Positions 13,490 to 60,499 of a DNA stretch of 64,000 nt are shown piece by piece. The notes below the pieces were generated by a model. The model was not told the origin of the DNA. It was given only the letters and a program-made list of their open reading frames with translations, and searched no databases. Position 1 is the first letter of the stretch, and each line of letters begins with the position of its first letter. The stretch is from Coniferiporia sulphurascens (lineage: Eukaryota; Basidiomycota; Agaricomycetes; Hymenochaetales; Hymenochaetaceae). The stretch covers positions 2,294,001 to 2,358,000 of the forward strand of contig NBBA01000004.1 of NCBI GenBank assembly GCA_002794785.1, read 5' to 3'. The position numbers and the translations under genes are program-made.

Positions 13490-13561
13490 TCGGATATGGT
13501 GTAACGGCCAACATTGCCGCCTTTCACGCGGCAGCTCGGGGTTCGATTCCCCGTATCCGAA
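13490..13561 (+). tRNA. tRNA-Glu (anticodon UUC), intronless
   Basis: Cloverleaf: acceptor stem TCGGATA/TATCCGA with discriminator A at 13561, anticodon stem GCCGC/GCGGC around loop CTTTCAC (anticodon 13523-13525), and T arm with the B box GGTTCGATTCC. The first clear T run, a possible Pol III stop, is T11 at 13635-13645, unusually far downstream. It differs from the copy at 27371 at two positions only. Confidence 0.95.
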
Positions 13562-27370: not shown

Positions 27371-27442
27371 TCGGATATGGTGTAACGGCTAACATTGCCG
27401 CCTCTCACGCGGCAGCTCGGGGTTCGATTCCCCGTATCCGAA
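27371..27442 (+). tRNA. tRNA-Glu (anticodon CUC), intronless
   Basis: Same cloverleaf as the tRNA at 13490 with two changes: position 27390 (T for C in the D loop) and the first anticodon base 27404 (C for T). Acceptor stem TCGGATA/TATCCGA, anticodon loop CTCTCAC (anticodon 27404-27406), B box GGTTCGATTCC. A T6 Pol III terminator lies close behind at 27448-27453. Confidence 0.95.
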
Positions 27443-58908: not shown

Positions 58909-60499
58909 ATGTGGTGCTCGCGCACCGTCTTTCGTTGCTTCCGATGGATAGAACGCGCGGCCGACAAGGTCACTGGTGCCGCGGGGCCGGTGTTCGTTAC
59001 CCTTGCGGTCGTCCTTCTCGCATTGGGCGTATTCTGCTTCTGTGAGTCACCCCCCCCCCCCCCCCCCCCCCCTACCCGCCATGTACGGAGTTCTATCAAA
59101 TTACTACTATTTTACCACTATTTACATTACTTACCGTTTCCACAAGTCGAGGTGATCCAGCCAGCGCTGCGCTGGCCCCTGCTCACCGCACCGCTTGACG
59201 TGCTCATTGCGCTCAATCTCCTCGGTCAGTACTACCTTGCATGCACAGTGGCCCCCGGGTTCGTCGGAGATGCGCCTAGAGACGAGGAGGGTATTTTCTG
59301 GGCGCGCAAACGCAAACGGGGAGGACTCGCTGGGCGCTGGTCGGAGGGCACAGATGCAGGACTAAACATAACGCGCGCCCACATGACCCGATGCAAGCGC
59401 TGTGGGCAGATGCGCCCTGAGGTGAGTTGATTCGGGCCTGCGCTATGGGCTTGTATTCCTGTCTGACCCCGTTTCAATGACGCGTAGAGAGCTCATCACT
59501 GTCGGATATGCAACCGCTGCGTCTTGAAATACGATCATCATTGTCCAGTGCGTCATTTTTCCCCGATCAACTTTAGTCAACGATGTCTCGTCTGACCGAA
59601 ATCACCTTAGTGTAGGTTTCGAGTCTCATCGCGTTGTTGCGGAATGTTCATCCTTAAGACTATTAGGGATTAACCAGTGTGTGGGAATTTATAATGAACG
59701 GCATTTCGTACTATTCATGTGAGTCTGGACGCATTGTTCCCCTCTTAGCCTTCTCAATTAAAGTTTATATTATGGAAGGGCCTATCTCGTGTTGTCGACC
59801 TTCTGCTTCTCCATCCTTGGCTATGAGAAGGTATGGGAAGCAATGGGGTTCTCTTACGTGCGTATCTGCCGTAATTTATTTCATATACTCGGAGTCTAAT
59901 TTTTATTGTTTTAATTGGGACTTAAAGACGTGGGCGCATTGGACACCGGAGATACTCTTCTCCCTCATATATATACTTTGCGTGGTGCTTTGTCTTGCTG
60001 TCGGCGCTATGTTGTCGTGGCATGTTTGGAGCATTTGTTCTGGCGAGACGTCCGTGGAGAATCATGATCATGACTTCTATCGCAAGTTTGCAAAAGAACG
60101 CGGCCAGGTAGGATGTTGTTCGTCCGGTCTTTGTTTTTCCACCGGTTGACCTTATTTTCGCTAGACTTTTGAGAATTCATACGACTTGGGGTAGGGTCAA
60201 AGGGTTATGTAACAACGGAGCAAACTAAGAACCCTTTTCCGTATTTCCTAGGAAACTTAAGAACCTGAAACTCTTCTTCAACCTTGGGGAAGATGGCTAG
60301 TGAGTCATCTATCATTCAGCCTCAAACCTCCAGTTCGTTGATTTCGTCAAGTCCTTACACGAGTCTGTTATTACCTTTGCGCGTAATGCCATACACCGAT
60401 GGCTCCTCCTGGGCACGGCGACCAGGCTATGTCGGTCACAAAGGTGTTCGACCAGAAGAAGAGCTTACGGATGAGGACTTTGAGGAAGAGGAAGAATAG
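58909..60499 (+). CDS. DHHC-type protein S-palmitoyltransferase
   Basis: Membrane enzyme that attaches palmitate to protein cysteines. The start ATG 58909-58911 (MWCSRTVFRCFRWIERAADK) precedes TM1 (PVFVTLAVVLLALGVFCFF), TM2 and a cytosolic loop. The zinc/catalytic domain follows: MTRCKRCGQMRPERAHHCRI, CNRCVLKYDHHCP and WINQCVGIYNERHFVLFM, where the Cys of DHHC is the acyl acceptor. TM3 and TM4 follow. The tail carries the family motif SLLLPLRVMPYTDGSSWARR and ends in a poly-Glu stretch at TAG 60497-60499. The Trp between CP and INQ can only be read if a single T at 59611 is an exon by itself (see the separate entry). A run of 23 C lies in intron 1. The overall motif set resembles ZDHHC16/Pfa-type enzymes; the exact subgroup is unclear. 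Confidence 0.92.
59050..59072 (+). repeat. poly-C run (C23) in intron 1 of the DHHC gene
   Basis: Twenty-three consecutive cytosines just after the donor gtgagtca. The complementary G run could form a quadruplex, and its length is likely to be unstable or misassembled. Confidence 0.95.
59611..59611 (+). other. predicted single-nucleotide exon of the DHHC gene
   Basis: The upstream exon ends CAT TGT CCA at 59547. Intron 59548-59610 runs from gtgcgtc to ccttag; the single T follows; intron 59612-59666 runs from gtaggtttc to attag; the next exon starts GGATTAACCAG. Joining through T gives CPWINQC, the invariant motif, in frame with everything downstream. No other GT/AG pair in this interval that I could find restores the frame. 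Confidence 0.75.

What the first reader, a model, noticed from the sequence alone, without database searches (positions are those of the whole stretch)
59548..59666. A one-nucleotide exon inside the catalytic motif of a DHHC palmitoyltransferase
Seen directly: CCA at 59545-59547 is followed by a 63 nt GT-AG intron, a lone T, a 55 nt GT-AG intron, then GGATTAACCAG. Only insertion of the T yields TGG, the Trp of the invariant DHHC-CPW motif, and keeps the rest of the gene in frame. Both introns have normal lengths for this genome and branch-like sequences (ctgac; cttaagac). One-nucleotide exons have been described in very few genes, and gene predictors would not call this one. An alternative is recursive splicing at a zero-length or one-base site.
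Basis: partly seen in the sequence, partly recalled or inferred. Interest (0 to 1): 0.88.

Follow-up and report, generated by a model that had tools for sequence, protein, structure and literature searches.

The report
One-letter exon kept across mushroom-forming fungi
A fungal enzyme gene contains an exon of a single DNA letter that must be spliced in to make a key amino acid; related mushroom-forming fungi appear to share this oddity, and the great majority of the gene annotations examined miss it.

Summary
At 59548-59666 two ordinary GT-AG introns (63 and 55 nt) flank one T at 59611, in an intact 10-exon DHHC palmitoyltransferase gene (58909-60499, 333 aa). Of 32 in-frame models enumerated for exons 3-5 (14 one-intron, 18 two-intron), only the one-nucleotide exon gives DHHCPWINQCVG. 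Orthologues suggest it is conserved. Of 187 listed proteins, 35 of 35 close relatives from non-NCBI contigs (33 of them at most 2,573 nt, transcript-like) read DHHCPW, against 4 of 130 genome-annotated Agaricomycetes/Dacrymycetes. The other 126 carry predictor work-arounds (PVR, PG and so on). In 119 of 119 parseable ones the residue before [I/V/L]N is R, G or W, the residues an NGG codon can give. The only two inserts long enough to be whole intron-exon-intron translations can each encode YAG-T-GTRNGT at exactly one place, giving 52+47 and 47+46 nt introns. Twelve of 12 listed annotated outgroup basidiomycetes read W normally. Most likely it is a constitutive one-nucleotide exon spliced in two steps. 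Such exons are known (plant APC11 and VPS55, Fusarium CYP621A), so this is a new member of a known kind. No RNA, and no DNA of relatives, could be read.

The parts
58909..59041 (+). exon 1 of the DHHC palmitoyltransferase gene
   Evidence: translation matches Coniferiporia weirii P0001 from its ATG
59147..59421 (+). exon 2
59488..59547 (+). exon 3, ends ...KYDHHCP (CCA), phase 0
59548..59610 (+). intron 3, GTGCGT...CCTTAG, 63 nt, CTGAC near -18
59611..59611 (+). exon 4: a single T, first base of the Trp codon TGG
   Evidence: only enumerated model that gives DHHCPW; orthologues
59612..59666 (+). intron 4, GTAGGT...TATTAG, 55 nt, phase 1
59667..59718 (+). exon 5, starts GG ATT AAC CAG
59779..59857 (+). 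exon 6 (acceptor ends at 59778, corrected from a first guess of 59763; gives FMAYLV as in most orthologues aligned)
59928..60107 (+). exon 7
60165..60190 (+). exon 8
60252..60299 (+). exon 9
60352..60499 (+). exon 10 with stop TAG

Best explanation
The T at 59611 is a constitutive one-nucleotide exon of a DHHC palmitoyltransferase gene. It supplies the first base of the Trp codon of DHHCPW. The 3' splice site of intron 3 and the 5' splice site of intron 4 lie one base apart, so the two short introns are most likely removed one after the other by intron definition: whichever goes first leaves T joined to one exon and a normal site for the second step (order inferred, not shown). The arrangement is not recent. 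It appears to be shared across Agaricomycetes and possibly Dacrymycetes, and most simply arose after their split from Tremellomycetes, by gain of a second intron one base from an existing one. Shown: the sequence, the frame, the uniqueness of the model. Strongly inferred from proteins: conservation. Not shown: RNA from this species, splicing order, mode of origin.
For: Window: 1 of 32 enumerated in-frame models gives DHHCPW; the 333-aa frame is otherwise intact; no spliced copy was found in the genome, as the spliced 113-nt query matched only the two window exons, positions 1-60 and 62-113. Relatives: 35 of 35 proteins from non-NCBI contigs read DHHCPW[I/V/L]N, against 4 of 130 genome-annotated ones (Fisher p 1e-31, rows not independent); within the listing alone, 23 of 23 against 2 of 97. 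On a tree with the junction masked, the nearest genome-annotated neighbour of 33 of those 35 lacks the motif; P0131 and P0046 are 89% identical over 214 aa but read CP-W and CPVG. In 119 of 119 parseable genome-annotated proteins (4 of them with the right motif) the junction residue is R 60, G 48 or W 11, all that an NGG codon can give; 83 of 119 have Val (GTN, the donor) straight after DHHCP. The two inserts of 28 aa or more, P0160 and P0163, can each encode YAG-T-GTRNGT at one place only, with introns 52+47 and 47+46 nt; P0161 and P0093 start with Cys, encodable as T|GTRNGT, leaving 54 and 45 nt. C. weirii's work-around ends RLLG-INQ, the translation of the window's own intron-4 end.
Against: No cDNA or reads of this species were seen. 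The lists were capped (120 of 290 hits, 120 of 224), and the query carried the W, which favours W rows in the region search. Four genome-annotated proteins already read W (correct annotation or intron loss). The leaked-site test is modest alone: shuffled peptides allow a usable site in 181 and 34 of 5000. Against it: the third Cys-starting insert, P0102 (CTQG), cannot encode T|GTRNGT, and the site that P0181 can encode would leave 20 and 34 nt, too short unless its insert is only part of the stretch. Dacrymycetes rest on one annotated species (P0157).
Confidence: 0.93

Rival explanations
1. One long intron with a shifted donor (59552-59666, GTGC|GTCATT), giving DHHCPVRINQ: Trp replaced by Val-Arg, as the commonest gene model among relatives says.
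For: In frame and stop-free through exon 5 and to the normal stop; 57 of 130 annotated relatives carry exactly VR.
Against: 0 of 35 transcript-like proteins show it; donor GTCATT does not fit GTRNGT; the PF01529 score falls from 112.6 to 100.2 bits; Trp is present in 12 of 12 listed annotated outgroup proteins and in aligned human DHHC20.
Confidence: 0.02
2. Sequencing or assembly error: the true locus has one intron and a normal TGG, with a T lost in the assembly.
For: No reads could be inspected; one missing base would suffice.
Against: 126 of 130 genome-annotated relatives show the same trouble at the same codon, and C. weirii leaks the same end of intron 4 with G, not T, before GG. A YAGTGTRNGT placed to give two introns is rare by chance (0.045% of shuffles).
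Confidence: 0.02
3. Stwintron (nested intron) or zero-length recursive splice site rather than an exon.
For: Two tandem introns in a fungus, and the steps are probably sequential; stwintrons are described in fungi (abstracts).
Against: In a stwintron an internal intron interrupts a splice element of the external one (abstracts). Here both introns have their own complete ends, and the DHHCPW frame requires one base between them to stay.
Confidence: 0.02
4. Pseudogene or allele with a frameshift, the AG-T-GT being coincidence.
For: None beyond the local oddity.
Against: The rest of the frame is open over ten exons and aligns along its length with C. weirii; relatives share the pattern.
Confidence: 0.01

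Closest known systems
Single-nucleotide exon of Arabidopsis APC11 (PMC4674806; abstract and discussion read) and the 1-nt microexons of plant APC11 and VPS55 (PMC8831610; passages read)
   Same: One base between two introns, widely conserved, missing from reference annotations, needed for the frame
   Different: Plants, other genes, RNA and RT-PCR evidence reported; no relation of the genes
One-nucleotide exon of Fusarium CYP621A (PMC12940212; abstract, introduction, results and discussion read), called there the first for a fungal gene
   Same: Fungal; the base completes a codon in a conserved motif; two introns in a stretch about twice the usual intron length
   Different: Reported from one ascomycete genus, base G of a Gly codon, supported by SRA reads; here the T of a Trp codon in the DHHC-CPW motif, apparently spread across a basidiomycete class
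Stwintrons of fungi (search listing and abstracts only)
   Same: Two introns in tandem removed stepwise
   Different: No splice element is interrupted here and one base is kept

Membership tests
one-nucleotide exon | exactly one base between two introns with canonical ends | tested here: met
   GTGCGT..TTAG | T | GTAGGT..TTAG, (from sequence, not RNA)
one-nucleotide exon | the base is needed for the reading frame and the conserved motif | tested here: met
   1 of 32 enumerated models gives DHHCPW; skipping the T brings a stop after 273 codons
one-nucleotide exon | the base is in the mature mRNA of this gene in this species | not testable with these tools
   no reads held; 35 of 35 proteins from transcript-like contigs of relatives carry W
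one-nucleotide exon | shared by orthologues at the same position (true of APC11, VPS55 and CYP621A) | tested here: met
   protein level only: 119 of 119 parseable annotated junction residues fit NGG, 83 with Val after P; leaked sites in P0160 and P0163; P0102 does not fit
stwintron | an internal intron interrupts donor, branch or acceptor of an external intron | tested here: not met
   both introns complete and one base apart
DHHC palmitoyltransferase | PF01529 domain with DHHC cysteine-rich motif | tested here: met
   112.6 bits, cut-off 28.7
DHHC palmitoyltransferase | palmitoylation activity | not testable with these tools
   sequence only

The most novel reading that the evidence does not exclude
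The one-base exon and its two introns have been kept since the common ancestor of Agaricomycetes and Dacrymycetes because the obligate two-step splicing is useful: skipping the T, or retaining either intron, frameshifts or stops the protein inside or after the catalytic motif, so splicing efficiency could act as an on/off control of this acyltransferase.
Probability: 0.1. Interest if true: 0.88.

Novelty: new member of a known kind. Interest (0 to 1): 0.74.

Why it matters
It may be the first one-nucleotide exon reported for a basidiomycete: none turned up in the open-access library searched, which lacks most subscription journals. The basidiomycete microexons seen there are larger (2-10 aa in Phanerochaete P450 genes; passages of PMC1184071). 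It would be far more widely kept than the Fusarium case. It sits in the catalytic motif of an enzyme, so by this reading 126 of the 130 genome-annotated proteins examined have a wrong active-site motif. Mushroom genomes with RNA data would give a natural series for asking how the spliceosome handles a one-base exon, in which order the introns leave, and why it is not lost. The R/G/W junction signature offers a way to look for more such exons.

Tried and rejected
The PVR one-intron model, assembly error, stwintron and pseudogene readings were weighed and rejected as above. Scans for genomic DNA of orthologues found none: viral contigs with the window protein, genome contigs and viral contigs with alignment A2. 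Other DHHC genes of the same genome (7 matches) do not show the arrangement where the motif could be read: L001, L002/L003 (one gene) and L004 read DHHC-x-W on contiguous DNA, and in L005 TGG is followed by GTACGT. In L007 the motif was not found. A first gene model used the wrong acceptor for intron 5 (59763); it gave the 338-aa protein used for and the alignment, and was corrected to 59778. The leaked inserts were at first chosen by eye; one search listed all 119 inserts, ran the test on those of 8 aa or more and on the short Cys-starting one, and found two of 28 aa or more, the same two. Paper searches: 'single-nucleotide exon', 'microexon' with 'fungi', 'intron' and '1 nt', 'stwintron', 'one-nucleotide exon', 'microexon' with 'basidiomycete', '1-nt exon', 'micro-exon' with 'mushroom' and 'splicing', 'single-base exon', 'recursive splicing' with 'fungi' and others, 'DHHC' with 'basidiomycete' and others. 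Of the nine papers, passages of four were looked at (PMC1184071, PMC3990503, PMC4014442, PMC11121469); those passages report no one-nucleotide exon, and the other five papers were not opened.

Full report
What is there. The window is from a genome of 39.3 Mb in 31 contigs. The closest listed protein is from Coniferiporia weirii, 92% identical over 96% of the query, an Agaricomycete of the order Hymenochaetales. The gene at 58909-60499 on the + strand has ten exons and nine GT-AG introns and encodes 333 aa with one PF01529 DHHC domain, 112.6 bits. Exon 3 ends with CCA at 59547. Then come a 63-nt intron, a lone T at 59611, a 55-nt intron, and exon 5 starting GG ATT AAC CAG at 59667. With the T the protein reads KYDHHCPWINQCVG.

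Is it more than chance? I enumerated one-intron (GT/GC-AG) and two-intron (GT-AG) models for this segment, introns of at least 40 nt, that keep the frame without a stop through exon 5. There are 14 one-intron and 18 two-intron models, and only one yields DHHCPW: the one-nucleotide exon. AGTGT is the only AG-N-GT in the 119 nt. With the ends fixed, 6.2% of 20,000 dinucleotide shuffles contain AGTGT in a usable place, but only 0.045% contain YAGTGTRNGT. Both donors match GTRNGT, and both lengths lie within the range of the gene's other seven introns, 52-105 nt.

Orthologues. The first search listed 120 of 290 proteins; the region search listed 120 of 224 and added 39; a search steered to longer proteins listed 29 and added 28: 187 in all. 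Unlisted hits were not seen. I split the 187 by source. Of 130 named genome-annotated Agaricomycetes and Dacrymycetes, 4 read DHHCPW[I/V/L]NxC[V/I]G (P0012 Tricholomella, P0018 Taiwanofungus, P0132 Flagelloscypha, P0134 Mycena latifolia). Of 35 close relatives from lgn, jgi or ena contigs, 35 do. Twelve of 12 annotated outgroup proteins do (6 Ustilaginomycotina, 4 Tremellomycetes, 2 Pucciniomycotina), and so do 6 of 6 lgn proteins that I grouped by eye as Malassezia-like. The remaining four (P0183-P0186) are distant DHHC proteins, 2 of 4 matching. In the listing alone, ranked over the whole protein, the figures are 23 of 23 against 2 of 97. Groups other than those looked up are assigned from names by recall.

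Why the 35 are taken as transcripts. Their longest contigs are 903-2,573 nt except P0127 (5,823) and P0150 (4,043), and 31 of 35 hold an uninterrupted protein of at least 280 aa. In the window the same protein is cut by nine introns. The meaning of the label lgn is not given by any search. Leaving out the three contigs above 2,393 nt gives 32 of 32.

Predictor work-arounds are themselves evidence. Annotated inserts between DHHCP and [I/V/L]NxC are VR (57 of 130), longer V... (18), G (15), other (14), VW or VG (8), C... (3) and W (4); 11 could not be parsed. A donor GTRNGT directly after CCN has a second GT at +5; using it gives V plus an NGG codon, hence VR, VW or VG. In 119 of 119 parsed proteins the residue before [I/V/L]NxC is R (60), G (48) or W (11), the only residues an NGG codon can give; the first residue after DHHCP is V in 83. 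The inference is that in these genomes the upstream exon ends at CCN, the downstream exon begins with GG, and the T is not beside it. Among the 11 unparsed, P0055, P0056 and P0106 read DHHW, and P0040, P0113 and P0115 read CPCVG; both outcomes also appear among the window's own false models.

Leaked intron sequence. Only two of the 119 inserts are 28 aa or longer: P0160 (Gloeopeniophorella, Russulales) and P0163 (Mycena indigotica). They look like straight translations of the whole stretch. Each can encode YAGTGTRNGT at exactly one place, giving introns of 52+47 and 47+46 nt; shuffled peptides allow a usable site in 181 and 34 of 5000. P0161 and P0093 seem to retain only the second part, starting with Cys, encodable as T|GTRNGT, leaving 54 and 45 nt. 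Two results do not fit neatly: the short Cys-starting insert of P0102 cannot encode T|GTRNGT, and the site that P0181 can encode would leave 20 and 34 nt, so its insert would have to be a part only. C. weirii P0001 leaks RLLG before INQ, the letters that the window's intron-4 end gives in that frame.

Direct pairs. On a tree with junction columns masked (P0103, P0187 and the four distant proteins left out; 181 tips), the 18 outgroup proteins form one clade, and the nearest genome-annotated neighbour of 33 of 35 transcript-like proteins lacks the motif. P0131 and P0046 (Heliocybe) are 89% identical over 214 aa with CP-W against CPVG; P0082 and P0118 (Lactarius) are 86% over 335 aa, also CP-W against CPVG.

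Age. Dacryopinax (Dacrymycetes) is annotated CPLG-INQ; Auricularia and Ramaria also lack the Trp. The listed Tremellomycetes and members of the other subphyla read it normally. The simplest reading is origin in the common ancestor of Agaricomycetes and Dacrymycetes. The Dacrymycete side rests on one species; the tree pairs it weakly (0.60) with contig P0156, which reads W, and whether that pair lies outside the Agaricomycetes was not tested. No dates are estimated.

Mechanism (inferred). The two sites are one base apart, so the two introns are unlikely to be recognised across the exon or at the same time. Sequential removal by intron definition is the most likely path, as proposed for APC11 (PMC4674806, discussion). 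Order is unknown. Skipping the T, or retaining intron 3 or intron 4, brings a stop after 273, 171 or 176 codons. Origin may be gain of a second intron one base from an old one. The alternative proposed for CYP621A, base loss at an exon edge rescued by a cryptic AG-N-GT (PMC12940212, discussion), is not excluded.

Comparison. One-nucleotide exons are known in plant APC11 and VPS55 and in Fusarium CYP621A, described in 2026 as the first for a fungal gene. PMC12940212 counts only APC11 before it, while PMC8831610 also reports VPS55. This locus is the same kind of thing in a new gene and phylum. It is not a stwintron, since no splice element is interrupted.

Limits. No reads, cDNA or orthologous genomic DNA were available; scans of held collections found none. 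The case rests on the window DNA and on protein sequences of relatives.

Noticed in passing
59050-59072: A run of 23 C in intron 1 of the same gene, the only C run of 10 or more on the + strand of the window.
   Followed up: no
L005 1561-1584: Another DHHC gene of the same genome reads DHHCPW with the Trp codon directly followed by GTACGT, so an intron may begin immediately after the Trp codon there.
   Followed up: partly
13490-13561 and 27371-27442: Two tRNA-Glu genes with different anticodons (TTC and CTC) in the window.
   Followed up: no
protein P0103 (Phellinidium pouzarii): The annotated protein lacks the DHHC motif and has no precomputed Pfam domain, perhaps because exons around the one-base exon were dropped.
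   Followed up: no
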